The notes under the pieces: generated by a model
What the model saw: only the letters and a program-made list of their open reading frames with translations
Databases searched by the model: none
Told to the model about the DNA's origin: nothing
Made by a program: the position numbers and the translations under genes
Shown: piece by piece, positions 30,281 through 60,187 of the stretch
How the letters are laid out: each line of letters begins with the position of its first letter
Numbering within the stretch: position 1 is the first letter of the stretch
Assembly (NCBI GenBank): GCA_963920575.1
Contig: OY986967.1
Coordinates: 4,695,869-4,759,868, forward strand
DNA: 64,000 bases
Reading direction: 5' to 3'
Origin: Narthecium ossifragum
Lineage: Eukaryota; Streptophyta; Magnoliopsida; Dioscoreales; Nartheciaceae

Positions 30281-30360
30281 ATATCGGGTGCGGGTCGAGT
30301 TTTCTAACGGGCCCCATTAGGCCCAACCAATACCCACAAGACTCCGAGTGGAAATTAGAA
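30281..30360. repeat. Promoter block copy A (beside VPS15)
   Basis: Roughly 80% identical by eye to 60110-60187 in the same orientation, including GGTGCGGGT versus GGATGCGGGT, the shared AACGGGCCCCATT core, the GGCCCAAC and AATACCCAC segments and a CTCC-GAGT/AAGT tail. Confidence 0.7.
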
Positions 30361-30599
30361 CGAAAAATGTTTCTCGCACCGGCTGACTGGATCGATGTGA
30401 CAGGTAGAATCATAAAATACACCATCCTAAGTGGCATGAAATTTTAAATAAAGTCGGGTTTAGACGGGTTTAGACGGGTTTAGGATTCATCCTCTTCCTT
30501 CATTCCGAACTCGAGAGAGAGATCACTCCCGAGAGAATCTTGGATTGATCGAGCTAGTAGGTGTAGGCGTTCCCGTCAATCCCGCGATCGAGGAAGGTG

Positions 30600-30731
30600 A
30601 CTGGGTTTAAGAACGGCACATCGATGGTCCTCCTCATCGATCTCGTGGCCGGTGGTCCTCCTCCTCATCGATCTCACGCCCGGTGGTCCTCCTCCTCACC
30701 GATCTCGCGGCCGGCGTCCTCCTCTTCATCG
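30600..30731. repeat. Degenerate minisatellite, left part (target of the SIRE insertion)
   Basis: Units of about 36 bp with GATCTCG, GCCCGGTGG and TCCTCCTCCTCA(T/C)C. The array continues at 42077-42262 beyond the SIRE element. Even the lead-in phrase GGGTTTAAGAACG(G/A)CAC occurs on both sides (about 30604 and 42136), so the array was itself partly duplicated before the insertion. Confidence 0.7.
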
Positions 30732-31901
30732 TGTTGATCCTAACCTTGTTTTGATGATGCCAATATACATTAAATGATAAAATATATGTTTAATATTTAT
30801 TACCCCTTTAATTGGAGATATTAAATTCAATATTTAAGTTATTTTGTACTGACGGTCGATGCAAGGATCGACCGTGGGAATGGAACGGTCAATCCATGGA
30901 TCGACCGTGATGAATGGTTCACACTTGGCTATATGCGTATTGACGCGACGGTCGATCGGTGCATCGACCGTCGGAAGCGTATTTTTTGATAGAGGCTCAC
31001 GGACGATGCGACGGTCGATGTGGCGGTCGACCGTGGCGCATCAATGAAGAAAGTAAAGCCGCGACGGTCAATCGGTGCATCGACCGTGGGAAGCGTTTTT
31101 CTTGACAGAGGCTCACGGACGATGCGACGGTCGATGCGGCGGTCGACCGTGGCGCATATATGAAGTAAAGTCAAGGAGCGACGGTCGATCCGAGCATCGA
31201 CCCTGGGAAGCGACCTTCTCAACAGAGGCTCACGGACGATGTGACGGTCGATGTCACGGTCGACCGTGAGAGCGACGGACGATGCGTGGATCGACCGTCG
31301 ACCAAAGAGGCTGAGTTTTTTATACGTGACGGACGATGGACGGATCGACCGCCAGGAGCGCGCAGAGTAAAAAAACTAGCCGTTGGAGAGTTGCAGGGAG
31401 CCGTTGGGGCTTCTTGTTGAGCTGGTTGAAGCCCATCTATAAGTAGTCTCTTCATATAAACTTGCCACAACTTTTATCACTATTATTGAGATTATTTGAG
31501 CAAGTTCTAGGAAAGATTTCTACTTATTCTCTTTGAGCTAAAACCTTTGTAAATCTTCTTCAAGTGTGAAGAAGTATCTTGAGAGTTGTTCAACAGCAAG
31601 TGGCTGTGATTGTAAGGTTACCAAGCACCAGGAAGCTTGGGGAAAAGCTTGTAAGGGATTTGCAAGTAGTGGAACCTCAAGGGGAGCCTTGAGAGAAGTG
31701 GACGTAGACCAAGAGTTGGGTCGAACCACTATAAATCGGTGTCATCTCTCTAACCCTTCTTTCAGTTAATGCTTGCATGCTATTGTAGTTAAGTTTCATT
31801 TTGTTTACAAGCATTCTAGCTATTAGATTCTTTTCTATCTGAATTTTCCATCAATCTAGTTTTTCAAAAAGAGTCCAATTCACCCCCCTCTTGGACCTTC
31901 A
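30732..31901 (+). repeat. 5' LTR of the SIRE element
   Basis: 1170 bp, TG...CA ends. Contains the palindromic GGTCGA/TCGACC array (30848-31363) and a likely promoter TATA (CTATAAG, about 31437). By eye it differs from the 3' LTR by roughly two dozen substitutions, a 12-bp segment present only here (near 31133) and a C-run length change. Confidence 0.95.
30848..31363. repeat. Palindromic ACGGTCGA/TCGACCGT array in the 5' LTR
   Basis: About ten units of ACGGTCGATnn...ATCGACCGT, each an inverted repeat with a short spacer, alternating with GAGGCTCACGGACGATG. The same array is at 41037-41534 in the 3' LTR, and a related one lies inside the element at 38701-38985. Confidence 0.85.
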
Positions 31902-31903
31902 AT

Positions 31904-31913
31904 TGGTATCAGA
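31904..31913 (+). other. Primer binding site of the SIRE element
   Basis: TGGTATCAGA, two bases after the 5' LTR, is complementary to the 3' end of plant initiator methionine tRNA, the standard primer of copia elements. Confidence 0.9.
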
Positions 31914-31965
31914 ACTAGGTCTCTAATTTAGTAGTGTAACAACCCTTAGAGGATCCTAACTAGAG

Positions 31966-33708
31966 ATGGAAAACATAGAGGGACAAGCTACCAATAGGCC
32001 ACCCTACTTCAATGGCTCAAATTACAATTATTGGAAAACAAAGATGGAAATCTTTGTGCAATCAATGGATTATGAGGCATGGCTAGTAATTGAGGATGGA
32101 ACTTATGTCCCGACCAAAATTGTTGATGGGAAAGATGTCTCAAAGACAAAGTGTGACTACACCCCAATTGACCTCAAAAACCTTCAAATTAATGCCAAGG
32201 CCAAGAGCTTTCTATTTTGTGCCCTTAGCCCTAGTGAATTCAATAGGGTCTCCACATGCAGATCAGCAAAGGAGATATGGGATAAGCTTAAAGTTACATA
32301 TGAGGGAACTAGCAGGGTTAAAGAGTCAAAGATAAGTATGCTAGTACATGAGTATGAATTATTTTACATGAAGAATGATGAGACTATTAGTGAGATGTTT
32401 ACACGTTTTAATAACATATTAAATATGCTTGAATCTCTTGGAAGAATTTATGCTAATGATGAGATTGTGAGGAAGATCCTTAGGTGTCTACCTAAGTCGT
32501 GGGATCCCAAAGTGACAGCGATAGAAGAAGCCAAGGATCTATCCAAATTGTCACTAGATGAGCTCATGGGTTCCCTCATGACCTATGAGATGAATTTGAA
32601 GAGGAGCAACGAAGAGGGAGACAAAAAGAAGAAGACGGTTGCCTTCAAGTCATCTAGCAAAGACTCATCTGATTCAAGCGATGGAGATGACGATGAGGAG
32701 TTGGCGATGATATCAAGGAGAATACAAAAGATCTTCAAACGCCAAGGAGGAAAGAAATTTTTCAAGAAGAAATTCTTCAAAGGTGAAAGGTATAATCCTA
32801 CTTCTTCTAACTCAAATGAAATCATATGTTATGAGTGTAGGAAGCCCGGACACATCAAGCTTGAATGTCCTCAACTCAAGATGCCTTCAAGGAAGGAGTT
32901 CAATAGTAGGAAGGCAATGGTGGCTACTTGGGGAGAAAGCGATGTGGAGACTTCATCCGATGAAGAAGAACAAGAGGTAGCCAACATATGCTTAATGGCA
33001 CATGGAGATGAGGAAGAAGAACAAAATGAGGTAGAGGATGAGCTTGCATTTGAAGAACTCTTTGATGCTTATCATGCTTTAGCTAATGATTTCAAATTCC
33101 TTAAAAAGAAATACTATGCTACTTGGGACTTGAAGAAAGTAGAAGAAGAAAAAGTAGATGCCATGCATAGGATTGGAACCTTAGAAAAAAAAAACAAATG
33201 CATGCTAGAGAACAAGTCTTGTGACACAAATGACACACTTGAGGATGAACTCAAGGACACTCAATATGAACTCACCATATTGAAGAATACAAATTATGAT
33301 ATGCAAAGAGAACTTATCTTCTTGAGGACATCCAAGAGAGATCTCACTCTAGAAGTTAATGACCTAAAAATCACTATAGCCAAATTTGTGAAGAGTAGAG
33401 ATAAACTAGATGAGATCCTTGATAGCCAAAGAAACTCCTTGAACAAGGAAGGAATTGGCTACAACCCTAGGAAGGTGAACAACCAAAAGAAGACTAACTT
33501 TGTTAAAGCTTCTTCTCATCCTCCTAAGGTAACACAAGGACCTACATGTCATTATTGTTGCAAAGTAGGTCACATTGCACCTAGTTACTATCTCATGAAG
33601 AATGCTAATGCTAAGAAAATCTGGTCACCTAGATATTCTTCTTCTCTTATGCATAGTACTAATGCAAATGGACCCAAAAAGATTTGGGTACCAAAAATCA
33701 AGGTTTGA
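31966..33708 (+). CDS. SIRE gag protein
   Basis: A 580-residue uninterrupted frame starting MENIEGQATNRPPYF, 64 bp after the LTR. The N-terminal half is the copia gag (UBN2-type) domain (YNYWKTKMEIF, KEIWDKLKVTYEG). A CCHC zinc knuckle follows (CYECRKPGHIKLEC, residues about 288-301), then an acidic region, a long coiled-coil stretch (about 370-500) and a second, damaged knuckle (CHYCCKVGHIAPSYY, final Cys replaced by Tyr). The extended C-terminal coiled coil is typical of SIRE gag. It is the only SIRE protein here still open end to end. Confidence 0.9.
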   Translation: MENIEGQATNRPPYFNGSNYNYWKTKMEIFVQSMDYEAWLVIEDGTYVPTKIVDGKDVSKTKCDYTPIDLKNLQINAKAKSFLFCALSPSEFNRVSTCRSAKEIWDKLKVTYEGTSRVKESKISMLVHEYELFYMKNDETISEMFTRFNNILNMLESLGRIYANDEIVRKILRCLPKSWDPKVTAIEEAKDLSKLSLDELMGSLMTYEMNLKRSNEEGDKKKKTVAFKSSSKDSSDSSDGDDDEELAMISRRIQKIFKRQGGKKFFKKKFFKGERYNPTSSNSNEIICYECRKPGHIKLECPQLKMPSRKEFNSRKAMVATWGESDVETSSDEEEQEVANICLMAHGDEEEEQNEVEDELAFEELFDAYHALANDFKFLKKKYYATWDLKKVEEEKVDAMHRIGTLEKKNKCMLENKSCDTNDTLEDELKDTQYELTILKNTNYDMQRELIFLRTSKRDLTLEVNDLKITIAKFVKSRDKLDEILDSQRNSLNKEGIGYNPRKVNNQKKTNFVKASSHPPKVTQGPTCHYCCKVGHIAPSYYLMKNANAKKIWSPRYSSSLMHSTNANGPKKIWVPKIKV

Positions 33709-33963
33709 TCTTCTATTTGTAGGATTGCATGAGATCCAAGATCAAGAACAACTCAAAGGCTAAAAGATGGTACCTTGATAGTGGATGCTCAAGACATATG
33801 ACGGGTGAAAGGAGCATGTTCTCAACCCTTCAATCTAAAGATGGAGGAATGGTGACTTTTGGAGATAATGGAAAAGGAAAAATTATTGGCATTGGCAATA
33901 TTGGTAAAACCTCTTCCATTATTATTGAAAATGTTCTCTTAGTTGAAGGTTTGAAACATAATT

Positions 33964-35614
33964 TGATGAGACGTGAAAAGTACACAAGTTAACCCCTTAA
34001 TTTACCTTTATTAGTCTTCGAGCAAGGTATTTCTAATAATTTTCATGGTATTTCAGGTACAAGAGCCTTCAACAGAAGTTAGATCAACTTTGGAGCGTAA
34101 ACGAGCCTATTCGAGCACATTTAGGTACATGGGTCAACTTCAAAGATTAAACTGTACCTTCTCAGGAAGAACCAAATAATGTACCATATATCATTGGAAA
34201 GCTCTGGAAGTCTAGTTTCTGAAGAATTTTACGGTTCATGATTTCGAGTTTCCTAGATGAAGTTATGGCATTTTTCGTACCAATGCGCAGTGCTGAATGG
34301 CAAAAGAGATAATATGCAGAAAAGAAGATCGATCCTCTGTGTATAAAGATCGATCCTTGTACTGTAGCAGAGAGCAGTAATTCAAAGGATCGATCCTCTC
34401 CCTATAGAAGATCGATCCTCGTCGGGGCGCAGCCAGAACTCAAGAGCAAAGATCGATCCTTTACCCTATAAGGATCGATCCTTTTGTGTCAGCCGAGCAA
34501 AATCAATGGTCCAGATCTAATCCGAGTGGGAAATGCTTGGAGGCTATAAATAGACCCCTTTTGGGGGATTTTGGGATTCTCTTTTGGACAAGAAGAGGCT
34601 AAGGAAAGGGGTAACCCCCTTGGGCAAGGAAGGGAGCTCTCATCCAAGAGGGAGGAGATTGATGAAGAAGATGATGATCCATCTCTTCTCCATGGTTTCT
34701 CCATCGAAGATGAGTAGCTAATCTATCTATCTAGTGGAATACCATGATGTTTTAGATTTTTATTTGTAGTTTTCTTTGGATTTGGATGTTGTAATCCTTA
34801 TGAGACAAGTTGTATGGATTTATTCTTCATTTCTATATCTTTGTAGTGGGATTCTAATGTTGGATGGATGGATTCTTTGGTTTGCATAAGCTAGAATCTT
34901 GTGCCCAATAGGTGTTTGTTGATATTCCCCAATGAGTAGGTTGTGCTAGAACCATGACCACTTGTGTTGAAGGGAGTCTTGGCTCTAGGTTAGGGACTTG
35001 GTTGTGCTAGAACCACTCCAATCCACATCTAATCTAGCATCTATCTTATCTTTTATAGTGTTTTGGATTCGAGATGCTAGAACCACCTCGATCCATTACC
35101 ATATTCCATACAACCCAATTCCTTGCGACGAGATGATCCTAACCCGACTTCTCGTTGGCGATGATCGTAGCTAATCCCTCAATCATCGACTTTCTAGCAT
35201 ACACCTAGTGCGACGGATAGTACTTAACCGGCTATTCGTTAGCGACGACTTTTGTTAGCCACAAGGTAGTCGATATTGTAGTGTCTCGATAGGATTGCAC
35301 ATCTTGATTCATTAGAAAGCTATGATTGAGCCTAATTCGGATTGGGATTCCCTATGACCTCTCTCTATCCATTGAATCATTTACATACTTTCTTAGTTTC
35401 CTTATCATAAAACCCAAAAATCATTTCTTTCATTTATCTTTGTAGGAACACTTAGATTAGGCCAAGTAGTTTAATTGTTTCCATACGCATTCCCTGTGGA
35501 TTCGACTCGGACTCACCGCTTGCTACCCTCAAAAGGTAGTTAGTTGAGAGTTTGATTATAAATTTCTAATTTTGATCGGGCGCGTTAAGCAGCGACACTT
35601 TCCACGTCCCATCA
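33964..35614. mobile_element. Solo LTR inserted in SIRE pol
   Basis: 1651 bp, starts TGATGAGACGTG and ends CACGTCCCATCA. The outer 18 bp form an imperfect inverted repeat. It is flanked by a 5-bp duplication TAATT (33959-33963) / TAACT (35615-35619) with one mismatch. TG...CA ends and 5-bp duplication fit an LTR element, and no coding region is inside. A TATA box (TATAAATA, 34545-34552) lies mid-element. The parent family is probably Ty3/gypsy but not identified. Confidence 0.75.
34324..34482. repeat. GATCGATC palindrome cluster in the solo LTR
   Basis: Six copies of GATCGATCC within 160 bp (near 34328, 34348, 34388, 34410, 34451 and 34473), arranged as three pairs separated by about 20 bp, upstream of the TATA box at 34545. 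Confidence 0.85.
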
Positions 35615-38600
35615 TAACTTACTTAGCATTAGTCAACTATGTGATAGAGGTAACAAAGTTATTTTTGAAGATTCAAAATGCTATGTTAAGAATGCTCTTA
35701 GTGATAAAATCTTGCTAGTAGGACACCGTGATGGTAATGTATACACATTTTATCTTAATGATCTTGTTTGCCATGATGATCTATGTCTTAGTGCTTTAAA
35801 TGAAAATTCTTGGTTATGGCATAGAAGGCTTGGGCATGCTCACATGGATTTAATATCCAAACTTTCTCGAAAAAACCTTGCTCTTGGACTTCCCAAGATC
35901 AAATTTGAGAAAGACAAGATTTGTGATGCATGTCAAAGAGGAAAACAAGTAAAATCCTCTTTCAAGTCTAAAGATGTAGTTTCTACCACAAGAGCACTAG
36001 AACTCATTCATATGGACCTTTTTGGGCCTACTAAACCAACTAGCTTAGGTGGTAGCTCATATGGATTTGTTTTAGTAGATGACTACACTAGATTCACATG
36101 GGTGATTTTCCTTGCACACAAAGATGAAGTCTTTGAGGAATTCACCAACTTTTGTAGAAGAGTCCAAAATGAGAAAGGTATTCTCATTACATGCATTAAG
36201 AGTGATAATGGAGGAGAATTCAAGAATTCCCTTCTAGAAAAGTTTTGTAATAACAACGGGATTTCCCATAACTTCTCTTCACCTAGAACCCCTCAACAAA
36301 ATGGTGTTGTTGAAAGGAAAAATATAACCCTACAAGACATGGCTAGAACTTTATTATGTGAAAATAATCTTCCTAAGTATTTTTGGGCCGAAGCAATCAA
36401 TACCTCTTGCCATGTGATAAATAGAGTAACCTTGAGACCCATTTTGAAAAAAACCCCCTATGAGCTTTGGAAAGGAAGAATTCCAAATATTGGGTACTTT
36501 AGAGCTTTTGGTTGCAAATGTTTTATCTTGAACAATGGCAAGGATAATCTTGGAAAATTTGATGCTAGATCCGATGAAGGAGTCTTTCTTGGATATTCGG
36601 GAAGAAGTAAAAGTTATAGAATCTTCAATAAAAGGACTTTGGTGGTTGAAGAATCAATGTATGTGACATTTGATGAAATGATTTTAATTCCTAGTAGAAT
36701 TGATAATGGTATTGATGAGGAAAACCCAAATGACAAATCAAAAGACTTATTGGATGAAACCCAAAATGATGTTGAAGAATTGAATGTTAGATTTGAGGAA
36801 TCCCTTGAGATTATACCTAGTGATCAACATCATGAGTTGCCAAAGGATCGGAAGTATGCATCTTCGCACCCAAAGGAATTAATAATTAGTGAACCATCAA
36901 GAGGAATCCAAACTAGATCTTCATTAAATAGTTGTGCAAATCTAGCCTTCCTATCTCAAATTGAGCCTAAAACGATAGAGGAAGAACTAGAGGATGATCA
37001 TTGGATCCTAGCAATGCAAGAAGAGTTGAATCAATTTGAAAGAAATGAAGTTTGGAATTTGGTACCTAGACCTCATGATCATCCCGTTATATGTACTAAA
37101 TGGGTGTTTAGAAACAAAATGGATGAATCGGGAACAATTACAAGGAATAAAGCTAGACTAGTTGCAAAAGGTTTCAATCAATAAGAAGGAATTGATTTTG
37201 ATGAGACTTTTGCACCGGTAGCTAGACTTGAGGCAATAAGACTACTTCTAGCTTTTGCATCTTACAAAGATTTCAAATTATATCAAATGGATGTTAAGAG
37301 TGCCTTCTTGAATGGGTTACTAAAAGAAGAAGTCTATGTTGAACAACCCCCCGGTTTTGAAGACTATAAATTGAGGGATCATGTATTCAAACTCACTAAA
37401 GCCTTATATGGATTAAAACAAGCTCCTAGAGCTTGGTATGAAAGGCTTAGCAAATTCTTGATGGATAATGATTTTTGTAGAGGAAAAATTGATACTACAT
37501 TGTTTACCAAATCAAAAGGCAAAGACTTGCTCTTGGTTCAAATTTATGTTGATGATATCATTTTTGGTTCTACAAATGATAAACTTTGTGAAGAATTTTC
37601 CACATGCATGCAAAGTGAGTTTGAGATGAGTTTAATGGGTGAACTCAATTATTTTCTTGGGTTACAAATCATGCAAACTCGATGAGAGATCTTTATTAAT
37701 CAAGCTAAATACACTAGAGACCTACTCAAGAAATATGATTTTGTAGAATCCAAAATTTATAGAACCCCCATGTGTACAACACTAAAGCTAGACAAGGATG
37801 AAGATGGGAAACCCGTTGAACAAACACTTTATAGAGGGATGATTGGTTCTTTACTCTATTTGACCGCTAGTAGGCCGGACATCATGTTTAGTGTTTGCCT
37901 TTGTGCTAGATATCAATCTTGTTCTAAGGAATCACATTTGGTTGCGGTCAAGAGGATCTTTAGATATCTAATAGGAACCCAAAATTATGGTTTGTGGTAT
38001 CCTAGAAGATCATCTTTTGATCTAATTGGCTACTCCGATGCGGATTTTGCCGGATGTAGATTTGATAGAAAAAGCACAAGTGGTACATGTCACTTTCTTG
38101 GTCATGCACTTGTTTCTTGGTTTTCCAAGAAGCAAAATTCAGTTGCTTTATCCACCGCCGAAGCGGAATATATTGCGGCGGGTAGTTGTTATGCACAATT
38201 ACTTTGGATGAAAATGCAATTGGAAGATTATGAAATACATGTAGACAAAATGCCCATTAGATGTGACAACACTAGTGCCATAAACTTATCTAAAAATCCC
38301 ATCTTGCATTCTAGAACAAAGCACATAGAAATTAGACATCATTTTCTTCGTGATCATGCACAAAAAGGAGATATTGCACTTGAGTTTGTTAGCACCGAAC
38401 ATCAAATTGCAGATATTCTAACAAAACCCTTGAGTGAAGACAGAATTCTCTATCTACTAAGGGAGCTTGGGATGTCCAATGGATGTCCAAAATAAAGGAG
38501 CTAAAAGGAAAAGGTATGGTCACCTCTTTAACTGCTTTTCATATCATATTCAACTTGAATGCTAAATTTTGGTAAATTAAGTTAATATCATGATTAATGA

Positions 38601-38700
38601 GTGATTTTTGTCTCATAATATTTAGTTACACGTGCTTGCAAAGATTTGTGATGTTTTGATTTAAAAATGATTTTAAATTGAATTTCAAAACTCACTTTCT

Positions 38701-38985
38701 GGGACTGACGGTCGATCCAGCTTTCTTGACGGTCGACCGTGCGTACCTTCGCACTGGACGGTCGACCGCCAACCTCCTCGGATCGACCGTGGGATGTCAA
38801 TTTTAAACCCCTTGTGTGCCACGGTCGACCGCCAACTTCGTTGGATCGACCGTGCGACAAAATGTGTGCGACCGTCGACCGCCAGGTTTTCGGATCGACC
38901 GTGCGACGCTTTTTTTTACACATAATGCTCGCGACGGTCGACCGCCAAGTTCCTACGATCGACCGCCACGGACCGTGTGATAACT
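38701..38985. repeat. Internal GGTCGACC array of the SIRE element
   Basis: Five units of about 60 bp, each of the form ACGGTCGACCGCCAA...GGATCGACCGTGCG, between RNase H and the third ORF. Same core palindrome as the LTR arrays but with different spacers, so not a simple copy of the LTR. Confidence 0.85.
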
Positions 38986-39161
38986 TAAGTCGGGGCTTTT
39001 TCGTCTTTTCCACTCCAATCTCCCCTTATAACTCCCGATCACCCTTCATTCCCCTCTCTGGTTCGACCGTGCCCTAAGTCCTCAAAACGTCCGCAGCCAC
39101 TCCTCCTTCTCTCTCTCAAGCCGATCTCCTCTTCCCCACTCAAAACCCTAACCAGCTGGCG

Positions 39162-40391
39162 ATGGCTCGCACCAAGAATGCTGGTCCTCCTTCACCTGAG
39201 GAACCAAGTGCACCTGGGAAACGAAAAAAGGCAGTCGCGAAGAAGCCATCCGGAGCAAAGAAAGCCAAAGGAGCTCAAGGAGGTTCTTCATCCAATCCTC
39301 AACCTACCCCTTCCTATGACGACTACTTCTTCCTGGATATGGAGAGGTATAAAACCTGGCCTGATTTTAAGGACAAGTTCGTAGTCTCGGGTAGAGCTTT
39401 ACAACTGCCCATAAACAAAAAACACGTAGTAGAGCGATACTTCACTGATATGGGATGGAACAAATTCTTAGAAATGCCTCAATACATCTATCCCGAAATG
39501 ATTAGGTATTTTTACTGCATTATGAGTGAGGATATAGATGATGAGGGATATGTAGCTATTACTAGCTATGTCTATGGTAATGAAATCAAAATTACCATAG
39601 AATGGTTGAATGAGCTACTTAATGCACCTAATTCAGGAGAGTGCATTTACTTTACTTCCCATGAGGATTTAAATAGAGCTAATCATGATAAACTAGGGAG
39701 AAAGGCTATCCTCAAGCCTCTACGAGTTGAGAAAATCCCTATATAACTAAATAGCCTCAACCAACAATTTAGGGAGCTTGCCCACTTCCTAGGAACAAAC
39801 CTATGTCCTAAGCTTGGCCATCATGATAATTTGGAACATATCCATGCCTATGTTCTTTCTTGCATGGTTAGGAGAAAACATCTTAACCTAGGCTATCTAA
39901 TTATCAAGGAAATGCTAAATCTAAATGCTAGGCAATCACTTCCTTTTGGGGGGCTCCTAACAAACATTTTCAAAGCCCTCACCCTAAACCTAGCCAATGA
40001 TGAACGCAAACCCCTTTCTCAACCCTTCAACAAATCCACCTACAAGAGGATGAAGGCCGCCAAATGAGCTTTAGGCCTCGGTTGGCCTCAACTCAGTTTC
40101 GATGAGGATGATGAGCCTCAAGAAGAGCATGGAGAAGAAAATATAGGGGGAGAGCCTTTGCTTGAAGAGCATCAAGGAGAAGCATCTAGTAGCCGAGTTC
40201 GTCGCATCACAGCACAACGGCTTGATGATCTCGAAGCTAGAATGGGAAGAATGGAAGTGAGTCTCGATGACATCAAGACTTCCCAAGCGACGATCACCGG
40301 AGATCAAGCCAAGATGTCTCAGCAACTTGACGAGATTTTCACCTACATCAAGAATGAATTTCCACCTGGCACTCCTTCAGAAAGCCTCTAG
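39162..40391 (+). pseudogene. SIRE third ORF (env-position / putative plant transposon protein), broken
   Basis: One frame of about 410 codons broken by TAA (39744-39746) and TGA (40065-40067). Start MARTKNAGPPSPEE is followed by a basic Lys/Ala-rich tail, then a domain like the putative plant transposon protein family (SGRALQLPINKKHVVERYF, YVYGNEIKITIEWLNELLN). The C-terminus is acidic then coiled-coil (RLDDLEARMGRMEVSLDDI). SIRE elements carry such an ORF where retroviruses have env; I see no signal peptide or membrane span, so an envelope role is not supported by this sequence. Confidence 0.75.
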
Positions 40392-40902
40392 TGATTGATC
40401 CTAATTTCCCATCCTCCTTACCTCTTTTTGATAATGCCAAAGGGGGAGAAAAGTGTGATGAGTGTGATGAATGTGAAAGCCCTACATTTCTTACTTTTGT
40501 ATTTTGAAAAACTTTGTTTTGAATTGAAAGTCTTGTAAGTTCAAAGTTTTCCAAATGATTTTGAATGGAAATATTGTATGGAAATGTTGAGATCCTTTGA
40601 ATGACATGCAAATGTGTTTGGATATTGCCTTGATGTATTAGTACAATTTTATAATCTCAATATTCAATATGAAATCACTTCATGAAAGCATAAATGTTAT
40701 TATTGAAAAGAAGTGAGCATGCTAAAATCCAAACCATTATGTCAACATATCTTGAATGGAACTTTTAATATCATTTGAAAGATATGTGACTTGTGTGCAT
40801 CTTGAAAATTAACTTTAGAACACATTTTCTGGAAGAAAAGGATGCATTGATTAAGGGGGAGTCAAAATATTTTATCATCACATTTAAAAGGATTGTCATC
40901 AT

Positions 40903-40916
40903 CAAAAAGGGGGAGA
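40903..40916 (+). other. Polypurine tract of the SIRE element
   Basis: AAAAAGGGGGAGA directly upstream of the 3' LTR, the expected plus-strand primer. Confidence 0.85.
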
Positions 40917-40917
40917 T

Positions 40918-48317: not shown

Positions 48318-48326
48318 TAAATTCTA

Positions 48327-48419
48327 GGCTAAATTTCACATTTTGTACCTGTAAAATATAGTAATTACAAATTTGGTACCTTAAATTGTGATAATTACAA
48401 ATTTGGTACCTCAAGTATC
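48327..48419 (+). repeat. Left terminal inverted repeat of the MULE
   Basis: Pairs with 54802-54894. It contains two tandem copies of TAATTACAAATTTGGTACC, also seen in the right arm. Beyond 48419 similarity stops after a further CAAGTATCAATACCGTAACAATTTG repeat unit on this side only. Confidence 0.9.
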
Positions 48420-49740: not shown

Positions 49741-50076
49741 GAAGGTCAAGTTCCATGGGAGGAGGCAAGGAGAAGAACCAGAGGCAAGGTAGCTGCTGTT
49801 GAAAGCCCAGAACATATTGTTAGGGGCAGGGAACCTGCTGCTGAAGGTGAAGCTCAAGAATTTGGTCTCAGTATGTGGTATGAATCTATGTATGGAGAAG
49901 ATGATAATGAAGGTCAAGTTCCATGGGAGGAGGCAAGGAGAAGAACCAAAGGCAAGTCAGCTGCTGTTGAAAGTCCAGAAAATATTGTTAGGGGCAGGGA
50001 ACCTATTGTTGAAGCTGAAGCTCAAGAATTTGGTTTTGGTGAATGTTATGAAGCTATGTATGGAGAAGATGGTAGC
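49741..50076 (+). repeat. 168-bp in-frame tandem duplication in the mudrA-like gene
   Basis: Copies start at 49741 and 49909. Each encodes about 56 residues beginning EGQVPWEEARRRT and ending MYGEDD/MYGEDG, with a few substitutions, so the frame is kept. Confidence 0.9.
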
Positions 50077-50219
50077 TCTGGCAGTATTTCCTATGCACCA
50101 TCAGAGGGTTCAAGTTGTGATGATGAAGATGATTACATTTATGAACATGAAACTGAGACTAGTATGCATGGAATGGAACATGTAGGAGTGAATGACATGG
50201 CTGAGGATGTTGGAAAGGC

Positions 50220-50636
50220 TAGGGGTGAGCAGAACCGAACCGAACCCGAAAAACCGAACCGAACCGAATTAGTTCGGTCCATTCGATTCGGTTCTTCGGT
50301 CCATTCGGTTCGGTTCGGTTCTAGCATCTACAAAAAATTCGGTTCTCGGTTCGGTTCGGTTCTTGAAAAAAAAATTCAGTTAGGTTCGGGTCAGAACCGA
50401 ATAACCCGACTACCCATTAATCCGTTAACCTAGACTACCCACTAACCCAAAAAATTCGGTTCGGTTCGGGTCAGAACCGAAATTTTCGGTTCGGTTCCAA
50501 TTATTTTGGAACCGAAAAATTCGGTTCGGTTCGGTTCGGTTTCAATGGTAATTCGGTTCAGTTCGGTTCTCTAAAATCTGGACCGAAAAAAATTCGATTC
50601 TTCGGTTCTGGACCGAGAACCGAATGCTCACCCCTA
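50220..50636. mobile_element. hAT-type MITE inserted in the mudrA-like gene
   Basis: 417 bp with terminal inverted repeats TAGGGGTGAGCA / TGCTCACCCCTA and a perfect 8-bp target duplication GGAAAGGC (50212-50219, 50637-50644), the hAT signature. The interior is almost entirely pentamer repeats of CGGTT and its complement (e.g. CGGTTCGGTTCGGTT), making it a giant imperfect palindrome. Element plus one duplication copy is 425 bp, and taking them out puts the upstream and downstream transposase frames in register. Confidence 0.92.
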
Positions 50637-52738
50637 GGAAAGGCTAGTGGGTATGTACCTGAGGACTACAGGTCTGATGACTTCAGTGTGAGAGGTTTTT
50701 CTGAGGAGGATGAAGATGGTGATAAGTATCCAATCTTCAGGGAAGAGTCTGATATGGAGGTTGAAAAGCCATTCAGTATTGATTTGAAGTTTGCCTCAGG
50801 GAATGTCTTGAAGGAGAGTATAAAAACTTATGCAGTGAAGAATGGATATGATATGAGAATAGTGAAGAACACAAAGAAGGCTATTACTGTCAAGTGTGAA
50901 GGGAGTAATAAAACCTGCCCTTGGAGGATGCACTCATCTTTGATGCAGAGGTCTGCCACCTTCCAGATAAAGACCATGGTTGACAACCACAGCTGTAGTA
51001 GGGTCCATAAGAATAGATATGCTACTGCATGTTGGCTGGCTAAGAATTACAAGGATGATGTGAGGATAAACCTTGAAATGGGTTCAGGCACTTTGAGGGA
51101 GAGAGTGAATAGGGATCTGGCAGTGCAGATTTCTAGGATGACTGCTTGGAGGGCTAAAGACAAGGCTTTGTGTATGGTACAGGGAAATTGGGCAGAGCAG
51201 TACACCCAGTTGAGAGACTATACCATGGAAATACTACGAAGCAATCCTGGAAGCACATGTAAAGTTGCAACAAACCTGGGAGCTGATGGAGGGTGTTATT
51301 TCCACAGATTCTATATGTGTCTAAGTGCATGCAAGTCAGGTTTCATGACAGGATGTAGACCTGTGATAGGTCTTGATGGCTGTCATTTAAAGACACCATA
51401 TGGGGGGCAGATGTTGGTGGCAGTTGGGAGAGATGTAGATAATGGGATGTACCCAATTGCATACGCTGCTGTTGAGATTGAGAACAGAGAAGCATGGATC
51501 TGATTCCTAGAACTACTTGCTAATGACATTGGCTATGTATATGGCTAGCATTGGACAATAATAACTGATCAACTGAAGGTATGTGTTGTAGCAGTTTTGA
51601 CTTACTTCATTGTGCACACAATAGTTGTAGCATATATACTAGTGTTATATTCTTATGTAGGGACTAATCCCAGCTATTGAGGCTACCATGCCTGGGGTGG
51701 AGCATAAATTTTGTGCCAGACACATTTTCCAGAACTTCAGAAAGAGGCATAGATAAGTTAAATTGGGGAAGCTTCTTTGGAGGGCTTCATATGCAACCAC
51801 TGAGGAGGCTTTTGAGAGGGTAATGCATGTTGTGAGAGCAGATGATGAAGATGCATTCATTTATCTTAGCAACATGGAGCCTAAGTATTGGTCCAGGCAT
51901 GCCTTCAGAACTTTTCCCAAGTGTGACATTGTGACAAACAATCACACTGAGGCATTCAATAAATTCATATCGACTGCTAGGGAGAAACCAATCATAGCCA
52001 TGTTTGAGGAGATAAGGAAGCTCCTAATTGACATAATGAGGGAGAGAAGGGAGCTGGCCAAAAATCTTGTAGGCCAAGTTGGTCAAAATGTGAAGAAGAA
52101 AAAGCTGGATATGTTGTCAAGACTGACAAGGGACTACATAGTATCATGGGTTGGAGATATGGAGTATGAGGTCAGATCCCCATATGACCAGTTTGCTGTG
52201 AACCTGGCAACACACCAATGCAGTTGCAGACTATGGGTGATCAGTGGCCTCCCTTGCCAACATGCAATTGGATGCATCAACAAGGAAAGCCATAACGTTG
52301 AGGACTATGTGAATGCCTGGTATAAGAAAGAGAGGTTCCAGCAGTGTTATTTATCTTTCATTCATCCAGTCAATGGTCAACTACTATGGCCCAAGGTAGC
52401 TGGAGAGCCCATACTGCCACCTCCATATAAGAGGCAGCCTGGGAGGCCAAAGAAGCTCAGGATAAGGTCACCTGAAGAGGAAAGACACCCATCCAAGCTG
52501 AGGAGAAGGAACACCTCAGTGAGGTGCACAAGGTGCTGGGAATGGGGTCACAACAAGAGATCCTGCAAGAAGCCTCCACAACCAAAGCCAGCTGATGGTG
52601 CAGGTCCTAACAGTGTAGCTATGGAGAGCAACACCACAGTTGGAGGCTCTGGAACAACAGAGGATGGTCCAAGCATGGGTGATGGCAGAAGTGGCAGAGG
52701 GGGTAGAAGAGAGAGGAGGAAGCCAAAGTCAGCAGAGG

Positions 52739-53250
52739 CTCAGCCAGTTAGAGGAGGAAGAACCAATTGGATTGCCCCAAGAGTGACTCGTGCCAATACT
52801 CATAGTGTAAGCTCCCAAGAAGTTTATATTGCATGCCTTGTTACATGTGTAATTTGGATGTGTTTGTAATTTGAAAACTAATGCGTAGTGCATGTTATGA
52901 TATGTAGGTCATGTCAGAGGCTCAGCCAAGGCAGCTCTTCGGCTCCCAATCAAGTCAAGTAGGAGGCAGTCAACTGTGAGGCTTACAGCCTAGGCCATCA
53001 AAGGCTCAGCCAGTTAGAGGAGGAAGAACCAATTGGATTCCACCAAGAGTGACTCGTGCCAATACTCGCAGTGTAAGCTCCTAAGCAGTTTATATTGCGT
53101 GCCTTTTTACATGTGTAATTTGGATGTGTTTGTAATTTGGAAACTAATGCTAATTGCATGTTGTAATATGTAGGTCATGTCAGAGGCTCAGCCGAGCCAG
53201 CTCTTTGGCTCCCAATCAAGTCAAGGAGGAGGCAGCCAACTGTCAGGCTC
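52739..53250 (+). repeat. About 265-bp tandem duplication at the end of the mudrA-like gene
   Basis: Segment with CTCAGCCAGTTAGAGGAGG, the exon end ACTCGTGCCAATACTC, the intron (GTAAGCTCC...TATGTAG) and the next exon start GTCATGTCAGAGGCTCAGCC occurs twice with a period of 265-267 bp. The first copy's exon hits TGA at about 52976; the second reads through to 53365. Confidence 0.85.
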
Positions 53251-53528
53251 AGTTCCACCTCATGTTGTGTCAAACTTGCCTGACAAAGTTTTATGGATGA
53301 TGGGGAGGCCAAGCTACCAGCAAGGACAGCAGGGGAACAACAGTGGTGTGGGTGGGCAAAGATGAATGTGTTTGTAATTGAACAATGTCTGTGACTGGAT
53401 GGATGTCTTGAATGTGTTTGGATGTCTTGAATGGATGGATGAATGTGTTTGTATCATGAATGTCAAGAATACACCTCTGTTGTTGACAGTCTGTTTGTTC
53501 TGAATGAAAGTATTCATTTGCTGAATGA

Positions 53529-53740
53529 ATGTATTCAAAACAGCAATTACAGCAAAACAGCAATTACATTAGTTGTAGTCTGTTTGTTCTGAATAGTATG
53601 CTCAAGTCTTCACAACAGCAATACCAATTGCATTCAAAACAGCAATTACATTCCAGCAATACAATAGTGTGCTCAAGTCTTTACAACAACAATACCAATT
53701 GCATTCAAAACATTGCAAGCATTCGAAACATGGATTAATT
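53529..53740. repeat. 71-bp tandem repeat and CAG/CAA-rich tract at the convergent gene ends in the MULE
   Basis: CTCAAGTCTT(C/T)ACAACA...CAATACCAATTGCATTCAAAACA occurs at 53601 and 53672. It lies between the 3' ends of the two MULE genes. Confidence 0.7.
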
Positions 53741-53789
53741 ACATACCACCCCATTTGAGAAACCAACAGAAAACAACAATTGCAATTGC

Positions 53790-54389
53790 TCATGACATCA
53801 ATAATGTGAGCAGATATGTGTTGGATTTGTCCTTTAATTGTTGCTTTTGCAGCTCTAGCATAGCTGTCATCTCATCTTTCTCAACAATTGCTTTCTTCAA
53901 TGTTTGGATCTCAGCTTGCATCTCATTAATGGATTGCTGCATCTTAGTTTGCACATCGGTATAGGATTTCTGCATCTCAGATTGCATCTCAACAATTGAT
54001 TTCTGTTCTCTTGCTTGGAAGACCTCTATTTCCCTCTCCATCCGAGATGTGTTTTGCAATAGGCCATTGATCACAGTCTTGGCACGTTCACAGATGTCTT
54101 GATCATACCATTCCCAGAAGTTGCAGCCACCATATTCCTGTAAGGTTTGAAAACAGAGAAGAGGATGAATCCATAGAACATTAACATTTTATTCACTAGT
54201 ATCCATGAATCTTACCTGGCGGGTTGCGCAACGGAGGAACCTTCTACCTGGGTTCGTCGATGTCTAGGAAGTCAATAGCCTCAGCCTCTTACCACAATAG
54301 CAGTAGGAGCCCCCCTGTCTCTTCATCGTGGATAAGCTAGATGCAGCACTGATATGTGGGCTCATGCTCGATATTGAGTTCTTGGACAT
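53790..54389 (-). pseudogene. GRF-type zinc finger plus coiled-coil gene of the MULE
   Basis: Two exons: 54216-54389 and 53790-54137, with a GT-AG intron. Exon 1 starts MSKNSISSMSPHIS and contains the first half of a GRF finger (SYCYCGKRL, then NPGRRFLRCA) but with TAG at 54264-54266. Exon 2 completes it (EYGGCNFWEWYDQDIC) and continues as a heptad-rich coiled coil (REIEVFQAREQKSIVEMQ and on) to TAA. Such small GRF proteins accompany plant MULEs, often antisense to the transposase, as mudrB does in maize Mutator. Whether it is functionally equivalent to mudrB is unknown. Confidence 0.75.
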
Positions 54390-54801
54390 AATGTCGTCGC
54401 CAGAAAGCTACAAGGTACAGCTTCGAAGGACTGAATCAAGTAGCAACAAAGAACTGAATGTTGGACCTGTCCAGTTGAAGCTTGAAGCTTGAAGATGATG
54501 AAATCGGTAACAATAGACACCAATTTGGGTACTAAACCATACCTTGGTACTCGGCTTCTCGCCGGCCGGTGATAAATCCGGGGGAGATCGGTGTATTTTA
54601 GTCCGGTCGGTCCGGTCGTTCCATTCGCATGAAACCCTAGCCCCCTTCTTTGTTGTTAGTTGAGGAGGAGGAGGGAAAACCCAGTAAAACGCCTTTGTGA
54701 CGCGTGAACCGACCAATACCGCTCACGTGATATCACGTGAGTGGAATACCGTTAACTGCTGAGAACGGCAGCTGACGGTAGGTACTCATGTGGTACATTA
54801 C

Positions 54802-54894
54802 GATACTTGAGGTACCAAATTTATAATTATCACAAGTTAAGTTACCAAATTTGTAATTACCATATTTTACAGGTACCAAATATGAAATTTAGCC
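54802..54894 (-). repeat. Right terminal inverted repeat of the MULE
   Basis: Inverted copy of 48327-48419, about 90% identical by eye, ending TGAAATTTAGCC at the target duplication. Confidence 0.9.
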
Positions 54895-55354
54895 TAAATT
54901 CTATTTTGTGATTTTTCTTCATGCCATAGTTAGTTGTGTTAGTTGTGTATGCATACGCTGTAGCGCAAGTCAAGAAAGCCATGGAGGTAGGTACTTTTTG
55001 GTACTTTATTGCTCTACAGGATTGATTTGATGTTTTCCTACTTAAGTAAACATGAGTTTCATTTTCAAAATAGTGGAAAAACTTTTGCATGCTACGAGAT
55101 ACTTGGGAGGAGAAAATTTTGTATTTTGGGGTGGCCGAGAGGGATACCAGACTCTTTTGAACACAGATATGCAAAGGGAACAGCATGCCCCATGGAGATC
55201 ATGTACAGGGTCGAGGAGTCATTTTGTACTTTGCCTCTTGTCTTATGTATGATATAGTATGTATATGTTTGAAATGGGAAAATTTTGTATATTACAATCT
55301 CGTGACCAAATTATGTAATTTGATGTCTACAATCCTATATACATGAAACATGCG

Positions 55355-55384
55355 AATGAAATGAATGAATGAATGAATGAATGA
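55355..55384. repeat. (AATG)n microsatellite
   Basis: Seven to eight uninterrupted GAAT/AATG units. Confidence 0.9.
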
Positions 55385-56380
55385 TGTGGCCGAAAGTGTT
55401 CCCCAGATATTTATAAATGTTGTAAATTATGTATTATTAGTGATTGGTAGGTTGTAAATGTGAAATCACGTGCCCGTGTTCAAGGTTCATGCCGAAATTT
55501 TGAGTGATTTTTGGCATAATTTCGATTTAAATTGGGGCGGGGGTGTGACAGACCAGTTCCTTACAGATTAAAGGAAATCATTTTTTAATCCACATCAAAA
55601 ATATAAATTGCTATGTTATTAAAAAGATTTTGACTGCATACAAGATTAAAGGAAAGCATTTTTTAATTTCATTTTTCAAATTAAGATGAATTGATATCAT
55701 AATCGATATGGAATCTTATTAAAAAAACCATGAAGTGGTAATGTATTTTATGTGGATTAAGAAAACCTTTGTTCTTAAAGTGGGGTTCAGATATCCCCGT
55801 ACAATTATTTCCTTGGAATTCCCACTGCAATACCCAATTTCCCGCCCTTCATTATAATCCAACCGTGCTGATGAAGCTGAGATGGGGTATGTTAGTATGC
55901 CACGTTAGTATGTCATACATTCGTATGCATCGGATAGCCTTGCCATCCATCAGAAGCCATGTCAATGACAACATGGAGAGAAATATTGTCAGTGGTCCCC
56001 ATATGCAAAAAAAAACCAATGGGGCTCCTTACGTGCCACAAGTTAGTACCAGGGGTGCATTAGAAGGCAAATACTAACTTTGGATCAAATAGGCCATTTA
56101 CACAAAAACCCGTTGGCAAAAAAAAATGTTAGCAGAGTCCACTGTCCCAAACTCTATATAAGGCTTTGTATAGAGTTAAGAGCATGGGTCCATTTTGGGA
56201 AAAAAAATTTCACAATATAAGTGTGCTTCATAGTCTTGCGCCTACAGCTATCTCATTTCTGCTTCATAGTCTTGCGCCCATAGCTATCTCACCTCTTTCA
56301 AAACTAGCAGAGATGTTGGGAGAGTCCACTGTCCCAAACTGCCATTAGGATAGATCCACTCGAACGCCCATAATGTCAGA

Positions 56381-56645
56381 GGTTTAAGTTGGAGTAAGTG
56401 GAGGTGGGGGGAGAGGAGGCCCTAGGGGTGACGACCTCGCCGATCCTGCACCGAGAAGGTGCCATTTTCCAGCGACGGAGAAGATCCATCGACGCCTTGA
56501 GCTGGGCGAAAGGCTAGATCCAGTCGATCGGCCATTATTTCAGAGGTGGCGGTGGAGGAAGCGGAGGTGGGAGGGAGAGGAGGCCTTGGGGGTGAGGACC
56601 TCGCCGATCCTGCATCGAGAAGGTGGTCGTTTTCCAGCGACGGAG
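56381..56645. repeat. Two-copy GA-rich tandem duplication, about 180-bp period
   Basis: Copies share AGAGGAGGCC, GACCTCGCCGATCCTGCA and GAGAAGGTG...TTTTCCAGCGACGGAGAAG (about 56410-56490 and 56575-56650). Confidence 0.75.
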
Positions 56646-57789
56646 AAGAAGCAACTTGCTCGAGGACGTAATGCGCCGCTGGTCTTGATTGACATGAAGA
56701 TGTTCCCACGAAGGCTAGGGTTCTCTATGATGAAAATAAAACCAATAGAGGTGATGATGAGGGAGGTAATGAGTGAGACGAGCCGACTTGAATTGATGGG
56801 TTGGCGAATTTTTCGACCGAGCAACTCGGCGTCAGAAAACTCTCAACATCCGTGGTATGTTCTTGTTGGTTTTCACTTTGAAATCATGACTTTAAATCGC
56901 ATAACTGTGTTTAAAGATGGTAGCATTTGGATGGGTTTTGCAGCTGAGATGAGTGATATAGGTCGGCAAGGAGAAGCTCGGCTCAGATCGGTCGTCATGC
57001 AAGTTAACGGTCTTCTTCAGCATGGTGAGTCGAAAAACAACCTTTGATTATTAAATTGCCTACCAGTCTTTATAAATAGCGTTGCTGAAATAAAACGTAT
57101 ATCTAATTTATTCTTTGACCTGAGCATACATATATTCTCACACATATCCATGTCTAACAGTGAAGAAAGTCACGACACATTATGGTTGCTGATGCAGAAG
57201 CTCGTTTGGACATTGCCATTACATTGGCGCTCTGATGTTAAATTTCATCGCAATGAAGGATGGATCCGTCGGTGGTTCAAATGACTTCAGTGATAATAAA
57301 GCTACGAGATACGTGCTCCATATGTTGTCAATGAATTGATAATAAAAAGGGGTTTTCACAACTAATTTGCTTACTAAACAATTGATGTCCATATTATAAA
57401 AGGAATCAATAGCAATATTCAGTATCATGAACCCATAAAGCCAAACAAGTAATTGACAGCTAGAATCTTAATATAGGGTCGGGATGAAGGTGCATCGATG
57501 TCCATATTATACCTCATAAACACAATATCTTTGACAGCGGCTTCTTCTTTGCTTGTTTTGTACCATGTCACCAGTCGTCTCATTCTTAGCTCCTTCATAA
57601 TTTCCTTAACATTATGCCCGACATATGAGGGACCTAATGAATGAGATGACTAGTGATACATAGGCACATTTGAAAACAGCCTCTGAAAAACATAGCTTGT
57701 AGCTCAACTGAGGCAAGGGATTTAATGTGTTAGAACTCTTTATATAAGCATCGGATGGATCTAGCCTCTTGTATCATGTGTGACCAGTC

Positions 57790-58020
57790 AAGCCGCGTGC
57801 TACTCGTCATTTTTTTAATCACCAGTGAAGTGAAGTCATGGGATGAGATTTTAACCAGTAAAGCGGAGTGCCACTCGTCATTCTTTTAATCACCAGTAAA
57901 GTGAAGTCATGGGAAGGGATTAAAGTGAAGTCACGGGATGGGATTTTAACAAGTAAAGCGGAGTGCCACTCTGTCATTTTTTTAATCACCAGTAAAGTGT
58001 GTCACAGGATGGGATTTTAG
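57790..58020. repeat. Degenerate tandem repeat, about 80-95 bp units
   Basis: Three units built of CAGTAAAGCGGAGTGCCACT, GTCATT(C/T)TTTTAATCACCAG and GAAGTCA(T/C)GGGATGGGATTTTA. Confidence 0.8.
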
Positions 58021-58518
58021 AAAACAAACAAAAGGAGAACAATCAAGTGTTACGTCTGTTAAGGGCGGGAGGTAATGATGGGAGTGGATGGGGCAGTAGT
58101 GATCACCAAGAATGAAATAATGACATGCATGTATGCATGCTTCACCCTATTTAAGCAGCAGAAGTCCAAACAAGTCAATTGAATTGGAGCATCTTGTGCT
58201 AAAACTACTATATGAGAGAATTGAATATCTCAAAAATTAAATTACCATTAATTGAGTTAAGACCACATTGACATTATTCAGAAACGTAAATATGAAACCA
58301 TAACATTTACAATAACTATTGTAAAAGGAAGAATGAATTAATTTCTTCTCAGATGCCATAAGAATTAAATAATGCCAATATTATGGTATTCAAAGTTGCG
58401 TATATAGATTAAAGATCATGAAGAGCATTTCACCTCTCAGAGAGCATGATGAGTATCTGCAGGGAAGCCTTATATATATACACACATACACCATATCCAA
58501 GTTTTTTCTCGCAATCAT

Positions 58519-59000
58519 GCATCTGAAATAGTTGTAGAGCACAAACCCGCGTCACAAGCACGGATCTCAGAAATTTGTTGTGACTACTCACATGCACGGA
58601 TCTCAGAAATCACATGTATATACAGTAGTTGAACGGTTCTCCACTAACTATTGCATCTGAAATAGTTGCAGTAGCGATAAATCGCATCACAGCCACGGAT
58701 CTCAGAAATGTGTTATGACCACTCACAGACACGGATCTCAGAAATCACATGTATACACAGTAGTTGTCCGGTTCTCCACTAACTGCTGCATCTGAAATAG
58801 TTGCAGCAACACAAACCCGCATCATAGGCACGGATGTCAGAAATCTGTTGTGACCACTCACAGGCACGGATCTCAGAAATCACATATATACACAGTAGCT
58901 ATCCGGTTCTCCACTAACTGCTGCATCTGAAATAGTTGCGGCAACATAGACTCGCATCACATGCATGGATGTCAGAAGTCACATGGCTTGTACAGTAACT
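58519..59000. repeat. 135-bp minisatellite, 3.6 copies
   Basis: Copies begin GCATCTGAAATAGTTG at 58519, 58653, 58788 and 58923. Each contains CACGGAT(C/G)TCAGAAAT twice and GGTTCTCCACTAACT. Period 134-135 bp; the last copy is shorter. Confidence 0.9.
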
Positions 59001-60109
59001 ATCCGTCTTCAGCTATTTTCACCGGTTTCAACCAATGGGGTCTGTCAGTGACGCTCTTCTTATATTAGTACTTGGTATGCCACTCATATCCTCTCTTCTT
59101 CATGTTGTCTTGTTGGTTTCTCTTTTCCGATGTGAGTCACTTTCCTCTATTTGCGTTTTTGTTAGCCGGGAGAAATATTGTTGTTTTCGAGCTCGGGTTT
59201 GGTGAATTCTGTGGTGTGTGGTGGGGGGGGGGGGGGTTGCGGGTGCGTTCGGGGCAGCGATGTGGGGGGGGAGTACTAGTGGTTGCCGGTGTTTGATATA
59301 GACGCCGACTGCTTCTTGCGAGGGGGTTGGGGGGAGCTAACGAGTGAGACAACCACCACTGATTTAGTGGAATGGTAAATTTCCAGAGCTTAGTCTCGGC
59401 GCTGACTAATTTTCATTTGGGTTCTCGGTATGGTGTTATACCCTTCGTTGTGTCTTTAATTCATATAATATCCGTTTAGATCTGGTAAATTTCAACTGCG
59501 GCTATTGTGAATTGAAAGGATGGTAGTTGCTGAGGACGGGATGAGCTTGGTTCTAATCACTCTTTCACTGAACTCGGCGACCTTCCCACAGTCGGTGAGT
59601 GAAAGAACAGTCGACTCCGTTTGAACAGTGTCAATTTTCTGCTTGTAAATCTTCACTTTTCTTATTCTCAATTAAGCACTTGAGGTTTTTTGGCAGTCAA
59701 TCCATTTAAGGCATGGTTGATGATGTTGGGAAAATGTGCTCGTGTAGGAATTATGACCTCATCCGGCCTCCTAAGGTACATATTGCCTATCATCCCTACT
59801 GTTTTCGTCAATACCATTATGGACCTTCAAGATTCATAGCTTACGTAATGCGGTCTATAATTCACAGTATAATGCGCGGCAGTGTTAAGGATGGGAATGA
59901 GTTGATGTCTCATCGGACAAGCACGTCCAACTAAGGATGTCAATCAACATGTATATAATATGAAGTATATACTAATTTTGGAGTTTGACGGCAGGTCTTG
60001 ACAGCATACTATAACTTTTAGATTATACCATATAGGATGCCACATGGGATCGGTGTAACACACCGGCTGAGTAGGCCGGTGTGAATATCACGGTTCATTA
60101 GAACCCACC

Positions 60110-60187
60110 ATATCGGATGCGGGTAGACTTATTTAACGGGCCCCATTCGGCCCAACAATACCCACCATCTCCAAGTTGGAGTAGAAC
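60110..60187. promoter_or_regulatory. Promoter block copy B (beside RPT5)
   Basis: Lies 75-150 bp upstream of the RPT5 ATG. Contains AACGGGCCCCATTCGGCCCA, with GGGCCC and GGCCCA motifs of the site II class found in plant proteasome and ribosomal promoters. Counterpart of 30281-30360. Confidence 0.65.

What the first reader, a model, noticed from the sequence alone, without database searches (positions are those of the whole stretch)
30281..60187. A 30-kb transposon island separates two divergent housekeeping genes that each keep a copy of the same promoter block
Seen: about 80 bp upstream of VPS15 (30281-30360) and about 78 bp upstream of RPT5 (60110-60187) align in the same orientation at roughly 80% identity, with the shared core AACGGGCCCCATT. 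Everything between is transposon or repeat. Inference: VPS15 and RPT5 were once head to head over one short bidirectional promoter, which became duplicated when the island formed (filled-in break or unequal exchange), leaving each gene functional. That would be a clear case of a promoter duplicated to survive a transposon burst.
Basis: partly seen in the sequence, partly recalled or inferred. Interest (0 to 1): 0.75.

Follow-up and report, generated by a model that had tools for sequence, protein, structure and literature searches.

The report
Transposon split a pre-duplicated shared promoter
In a monocot plant, a Mutator-type jumping gene landed next to the seam between two tandem copies of a short promoter region that sat between two back-to-back housekeeping genes, so each gene kept one copy; the copies already existed before the transposon came, and the case is tidy rather than revolutionary.

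Summary
In detail: about 81 bp upstream of VPS15 (30281-30361) and 78 bp upstream of RPT5 (60110-60187) are homologous, in the same orientation, and a genome-wide search found no third copy. The 30-kb island is best read as one insertion (30362-60096) of a Mutator-like element (MULE), later enlarged by a SIRE-type copia retrotransposon and a MuDR-type element inside it. Its ends recur across the genome; at 8 of 9 testable copies the flanks match at 7-9 of 9 bases. Here the 8-bp repeat ATTAGAAC touches both ends, which fits a 9-bp duplication that lost one base. Without the element and one copy of that repeat, the two blocks form a seamless 86-bp tandem repeat and the VPS15 and RPT5 start codons lie 478 bp apart. 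So the promoter region was tandemly duplicated first and the MULE hit near the seam; the insertion did not make the duplication. Head-to-head ancestry is supported for this lineage. In rice the genes are linked but not neighbours. Whether both blocks are working promoters was not testable. A new, unusually clean example of known processes.

The parts
30281..30361 (.). promoter unit 1 (VPS15 side), includes the left target-site repeat ATTAGAAC at 30354-30361
60110..60187 (.). promoter unit 2 (RPT5 side)
60097..60109 (.). right target-site repeat ATTAGAAC (60097-60104) followed by CCACC (60105-60109), read as the displaced tail of unit 1
30362..60096 (+). outer Mutator-like element (MULE), one insertion; about 11.8 kb without its two main nested insertions; lacks the stretch that holds the transposase in sister copies C7b and C13a
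   Evidence: ends recur genome-wide; paired ends with target-site duplications; collinear parts in sister copies; two sister copies hold a FAR1/MULE transposase
30734..42076 (+). nested SIRE-type copia LTR retrotransposon (label SIRE recalled); LTRs about 98.2% identical; 5-bp duplication CATCG at 30729-30733 and 42077-42081
48314..54907 (+). nested MuDR-type element with 106-nt terminal inverted repeats (91%); DBD_Tnp_Mut and SWIM domains; absent from sister copies C7a and C11 of the outer element (junction about 48324/54906)
47173..47421 (+). Ulp1-type peptidase (Peptidase_C48) fragment carried by the outer MULE
   Evidence: 24.7 bits, cut-off 20.7; part of the profile only
30320..30325 (-). 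TGGGCC (reads GGCCCA on +), holding the TGGGC core of the proteasome-related cis-element, unit 1
   Evidence: motif from PMC6568242 (passage)
60149..60154 (-). TGGGCC (reads GGCCCA on +), same motif, unit 2
   Evidence: motif from PMC6568242 (passage)
21737..30040 (-). VPS15 (PI3-kinase regulatory subunit), start codon at 30040, large exon 21737-24913; that exon has one match in this genome
60262..64000 (+). RPT5 (26S proteasome ATPase subunit 6A), first five exons as read by me from the frames; runs off the window

Best explanation
VPS15 and RPT5 stood head to head, 478 bp between start codons, over an intergenic region holding two tandem copies of an ~86-bp unit (shown by joining the flanks). 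A Mutator-like element inserted 5 bp before the end of the first unit and made a short target-site duplication (shown, with a one-base irregularity). One unit was thus left next to VPS15 and the other next to RPT5. The element lacks the transposase stretch of sister copies and received a SIRE-type copia element and a MuDR-type element, growing to 30 kb (shown by comparison). That each unit works as a core promoter for its gene, through the GGCCCA/TGGGC site, and that the pre-existing duplication is why the insertion was tolerated, is inference.
For: The dispersed repeat begins at the block's distal edge on the left (30 rows: itself, the RPT5 block and 28 elsewhere, none of the 28 reaching further into the block than 30354) and ends before the right block (40 rows besides itself, none reaching past 60105; only 40 of 97 candidates were scored). 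Ten end pairs were fetched; 9 have a recognisable right end; in 8 of these 9 the flanks match at 7-9 of 9 bases (best over shifts of up to 2 bases), and 0 of 90 mismatched end combinations reach 7. At the window copy the 8 bp touching both ends are identical (ATTAGAAC); 90 mismatched combinations share at most 6 in a row. Of nine sister copies compared, three match 42.1-48.3 kb nearly throughout, three match 55.6-57.9 kb and nine match the right end. Two sister copies lack the nested MuDR at its junction. Two sister copies encode FAR1 + MULE + SWIM transposase domains. Joined flanks give unit 1 + unit 2 with no spacer, 70 of 85 columns identical. Unit divergence (10 mismatches in 80 ungapped columns) is far above the nested LTR divergence (21 of 1163), consistent with the duplication being older than that nested insertion.
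Against: In the strict 9-base test the window copy scores only 4 of 9, because its duplication is offset by one base; I read this as a one-base loss and chose the common-substring test after seeing it; in that second test 4 of the 9 sister pairs share only 2-5 bases in a row. One of the 9 testable sister copies shows no duplication at its exact end. Three of the nine sister copies (C1a, C1b, C2) share little beyond the ends or the terminal minisatellite, and parts of the window interior (about 55.2-55.6 and 58.2-58.4 kb) match none of the nine. The insertion age of the outer MULE was not measured. No other plant genome was available to see the empty site, and rice does not have the two genes as neighbours.
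Confidence: 0.9

Rival explanations
1. One reading: a single shared promoter block was copied when the island formed, by filling in a staggered break of about 80 bp or by unequal exchange, so that a copy lies on each side.
For: Two diverged copies in the same orientation flank the island.
Against: The outer element has its own short target-site duplication typical of its family. The sequence between its right end and unit 2 is the tail of unit 1, not nothing, so the flanks already formed a tandem repeat. Unit divergence is much larger than that of the nested LTRs, though that only bounds the nested insertion.
Confidence: 0.04
2. The two blocks are independent promoters that look alike because both hold common plant promoter motifs (GGCCCA; the name site II is recalled).
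For: Both hold GGCCCA and the GGGCCC palindrome.
Against: 70 of 85 columns align in order, score 103 against a shuffled maximum of 38 in 2000; no other place in the genome matched.
Confidence: 0.02
3. VPS15 and RPT5 were not neighbours; ectopic recombination between two copies of the MULE joined two unrelated flanks.
For: In rice the genes are on the same chromosome but 70 steps apart in locus numbering.
Against: Recombinant flanks would not share a target-site duplication; here 8 of 8 adjoining bases match, and the flanks also join in register as a tandem repeat.
Confidence: 0.04

Closest known systems
Mutator-like elements with FAR1-type transposase and captured Ulp1 domain (Kaonashi-type; the Ulp1-MULE link seen as passages in PMC2528002 and PMC13317346; the label Jittery-like is recalled)
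   Same: about 9-bp target-site duplications, MULE transposase in two sister copies, Ulp1-type peptidase fragment inside
   Different: the window copy lacks the transposase stretch and is inflated by nested insertions; terminal inverted repeats are degenerate; the Kaonashi elements described are non-TIR MULEs
Plant bidirectional promoters (definition seen in the abstract start of PMC2648788 in a search listing: adjacent opposite-strand genes with start sites within 1000 bp)
   Same: VPS15 and RPT5 start codons 478 bp apart on opposite strands in the empty site
   Different: now separated by 30 kb; start sites and co-expression not known
Proteasome-related cis-element TGGGC of NAC78 (passage in PMC6568242)
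   Same: each unit holds one TGGGC (reverse strand); one lies upstream of a proteasome gene
   Different: the 5-base motif is common; binding not tested, and one unit now lies beside VPS15, not a proteasome gene

Membership tests
Mutator-like element (MULE) | about 9-bp target-site duplication | tested here: met
   family: 8 of 9 testable copies match at 7-9 of 9 bases; window copy 8-bp exact, offset by one in the 9-base frame where it scores 4 of 9
Mutator-like element (MULE) | MULE-type transposase | tested here: met
   in the two sister copies scanned, PF10551 with FAR1 and SWIM; the window copy itself lacks that stretch
Mutator-like element (MULE) | terminal inverted repeats | tested here: inconclusive
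   three left ends from sister copies align inverted to the window right end over about 70 columns with many mismatches; the window's own two ends align only weakly
Ulp1-carrying (Kaonashi-type) MULE | Ulp1 peptidase domain within the element | tested here: met
   weak and partial but above cut-off, 24.7 vs 20.7 bits, lying in the part shared with three sister copies
Ulp1-carrying (Kaonashi-type) MULE | VANC-type gene, absence of inverted repeats, phylogenetic grouping | not tested
   no phylogeny made
SIRE-type copia retrotransposon | copia LTR element: LTR pair, 5-bp duplication, gag-integrase-reverse transcriptase order | tested here: met
   the SIRE label itself is recalled and was not tested
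Bidirectional promoter | opposite-strand genes with start sites within 1000 bp | tested here: inconclusive
   empty-site start-codon distance 478 bp; transcription start sites unknown
Bidirectional promoter | co-regulated transcription in both directions | not testable with these tools
   no expression data
Dispersed repeat (for the block) | many copies in the genome | tested here: not met
   2 matches, both in this window

The most novel reading that the evidence does not exclude
The pre-existing tandem duplication of a two-way core promoter acted as a buffer: it made an otherwise damaging insertion between two essential genes survivable, turning a two-way promoter into two one-way promoters in one step, so the locus is a natural bisection of a bidirectional promoter.
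Probability: 0.35. Interest if true: 0.55.

Novelty: new member of a known kind. Interest (0 to 1): 0.38.

Why it matters
It gives an ordered history (promoter duplicated, genes split by a transposon, transposon then filled by others) that can be read from sequence alone. It offers a natural test of whether a short promoter unit that once stood between two genes can serve each alone, and whether duplicated regulatory DNA makes a gene-dense site tolerant of transposons.

Tried and rejected
Dispersed-repeat origin of the block: rejected. Motif convergence: rejected. A third, degenerate unit beside the two: none seen by eye in the joined flank; no formal test. A third gene in the island: 30455-30730 looked like a gene leader but is repeated across the genome as part of the MULE.

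Synteny from locus tags and contig lengths in two protein searches, compared by eye (120 of 417 VPS15 rows shown; 120 of 7926 RPT5 rows shown): the only contig length in both lists is Canna indica's 79,688,840, so probably one chromosome. Against linkage: in the rows shown, Typha, Iris, Zingiber, Dendrobium, Phalaenopsis, Nyssa, Tetracentron, Papaver armeniacum, Macleaya and Euphorbia lathyris have the two genes on contigs of different length; several of these have more than one RPT5 or VPS15 row, and rows for collapsed clusters name one member only, so this is weak either way. Protein records carry no accession, so adjacency in Canna could not be read.

Papers: a first search for rice locus names gave 0. 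Three papers looked into by passages gave no usable VPS15 locus: PMC6016017 (no occurrence), PMC5062844, PMC7891152. No paper was found on a VPS15-RPT5 shared promoter (one hit, a human PSMC3 paper seen only in the listing) and none holding all five terms on head-to-head genes, tandem duplication, bidirectional promoter, transposable element and intergenic. A wider search on bidirectional promoters and transposon insertion was seen as a listing only, 12 of 34.
Full report
What was claimed.

The two blocks align over 81 bp in the same orientation (57 bp at 88%, E 3e-14), the core is exact at both places and at no other place in the window (one further place with 2 mismatches), and the score is far above shuffles. 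In the window's own genome (379,400,290 bases, 150 contigs) a search with the right block and RPT5 leader gives 2 of 2 candidates at E<=1: the two blocks themselves. The genes are VPS15 on the minus strand and RPT5 on the plus strand. VPS15's large exon has one match. RPT5 has this well-kept copy and, among 48 rows of AAA-type matches, more diverged RPT5-like places on contig C3. The plant is a monocot by its relatives: named sources among the best VPS15 rows are oil palm, Dioscorea, Musa and Asparagus at 66-69%; the species was not identified.

The island is one insertion. Just past the left block, from 30362, the sequence is a dispersed repeat (30 rows, of which one is the query, one is the RPT5 block and 28 are elsewhere; the 28 start at 30354 or later). 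Just before the right block, up to 60096, it is again a dispersed repeat (41 rows, one the query; 28 cover the end itself and 12 a segment just inside it; 40 of 97 candidates were scored, so these are lower bounds). I chose 10 places where a left and a right hit lay on the same contig in the same orientation and fetched both ends. In 1 of 10 no right end was found (the hit was to the inner segment); the other 9 span roughly 9 to 37 kb. In 8 of the 9 the flanking bases match at 7 to 9 of 9, allowing shifts of up to two bases; in 1 they do not. Of 90 mismatched combinations none reaches 7. Nine bases is the length given as typical for plant MULEs (passage in PMC2528002), and the two sister-copy proteins scanned hold MULE transposase, FAR1 and SWIM domains. 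The element in the window shares its interior with some sister copies in order: of nine compared, three match 42.1-48.3 kb nearly throughout, three match 55.6-57.9 kb, and nine match the right end; three (C1a, C1b, C2) share little beyond the ends or the minisatellite, and about 55.2-55.6 and 58.2-58.4 kb match none. In copies C7b and C13a the transposase frame lies in a stretch (about 7.5 and 5.5 kb) between the positions that match 60008 and 60025, and in the window these two positions are side by side.

Two later insertions explain most of the size. A copia element with about 98.2% identical LTRs (21 mismatches in 1163 columns, 20 of them transitions) and the 5-bp duplication CATCG sits at 30734-42076. 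A MuDR-type element with 106-nt inverted repeats sits at 48314-54907; two sister copies of the outer element run across that junction without it. Without these the outer element is about 11.8 kb.

The duplication came first. At the window copy the 8 bases ATTAGAAC touch the element on both sides (30354-30361 and 60097-60104). In a strict 9-base frame the match is offset by one base and scores 4 of 9; a one-base loss explains this, and the common-substring form of the test, which I chose after seeing that, gives 8 for the window, between 2 and 9 for the nine sister pairs, and at most 6 for 90 mismatched combinations. Taking away the element and one copy of the repeat gives ...TTAGAAC CCACC ATATCGG...: the last five bases of unit 1 lie between the right-hand repeat and unit 2. 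The two units then follow each other with no spacer, period 86 bp, 70 of 85 columns identical, and the homology runs on into those extra bases. A copy made by filling in an 80-bp stagger would leave the element directly against unit 2. The units differ at 10 of 80 ungapped columns, much more than the nested LTRs, which agrees with an older duplication but does not date the MULE itself.

What it means for the genes. In the empty site the start codons are 478 bp apart, so the two genes were true head-to-head neighbours in this lineage, and a matching target-site repeat argues against two unrelated flanks joined by recombination. In rice OsVPS15 is Os02g0796700 (passage in PMC13360276) and the RPT5 homologue is Os02g0803700 (passage in PMC4526543; LOC_Os02g56000 in passages of PMC11203680 and PMC4585792): same chromosome, 70 steps apart in locus numbering (that numbers rise by 100 per locus is recalled), so not adjacent. 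In Canna both genes sit on contigs of the same length, which suggests one chromosome and no more; in several other plants the listed copies are on contigs of different length. When the adjacency arose is therefore open.

How it probably works now. Each unit holds one GGCCCA, that is TGGGCC on the other strand, at 30320 and 60149; TGGGC is the proteasome-related cis-element described for NAC78 (passage in PMC6568242). I infer that each unit supplies core promoter function to the gene beside it and that having two units is why the split was tolerated. No expression data were available, so this is not shown.

Verdict. A confirmed observation, with the head-to-head origin supported and the proposed cause of duplication replaced: tandem promoter first, one MULE insertion near the seam, nested insertions later. 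A clear example of known processes.

Noticed in passing
window 16923-17762: Callose (1,3-beta-glucan) synthase exon on the plus strand, so the gene left of VPS15 is probably a callose synthase.
   Followed up: no
G000 C3:4420121-4421855, C3:3786563-3787256 and C3:3755145-3755270: Diverged RPT5-like places (best exons 78-79% identity, others 60-66%, some stops at exon ends that may be introns), unusual for such a conserved protein.
   Followed up: no
window 33993-35588: The copia element's pol is interrupted by about 1.6 kb of other sequence, perhaps another nested insertion.
   Followed up: no
window 30628-30731 and 42082-42260: 31-bp minisatellite (TCCTCCTCATCGATCTCG...) that belongs to the MULE family and varies in copy number among its members; the copia element landed inside it.
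   Followed up: partly
window 58518-58977: 135-bp tandem repeat, 3.4 copies, inside the outer MULE; a related stretch was seen in one of nine sister copies compared.
   Followed up: no
window 39078-39743: Open frame with a weak, below-cut-off match to Transposase_32 downstream of the copia pol.
   Followed up: no
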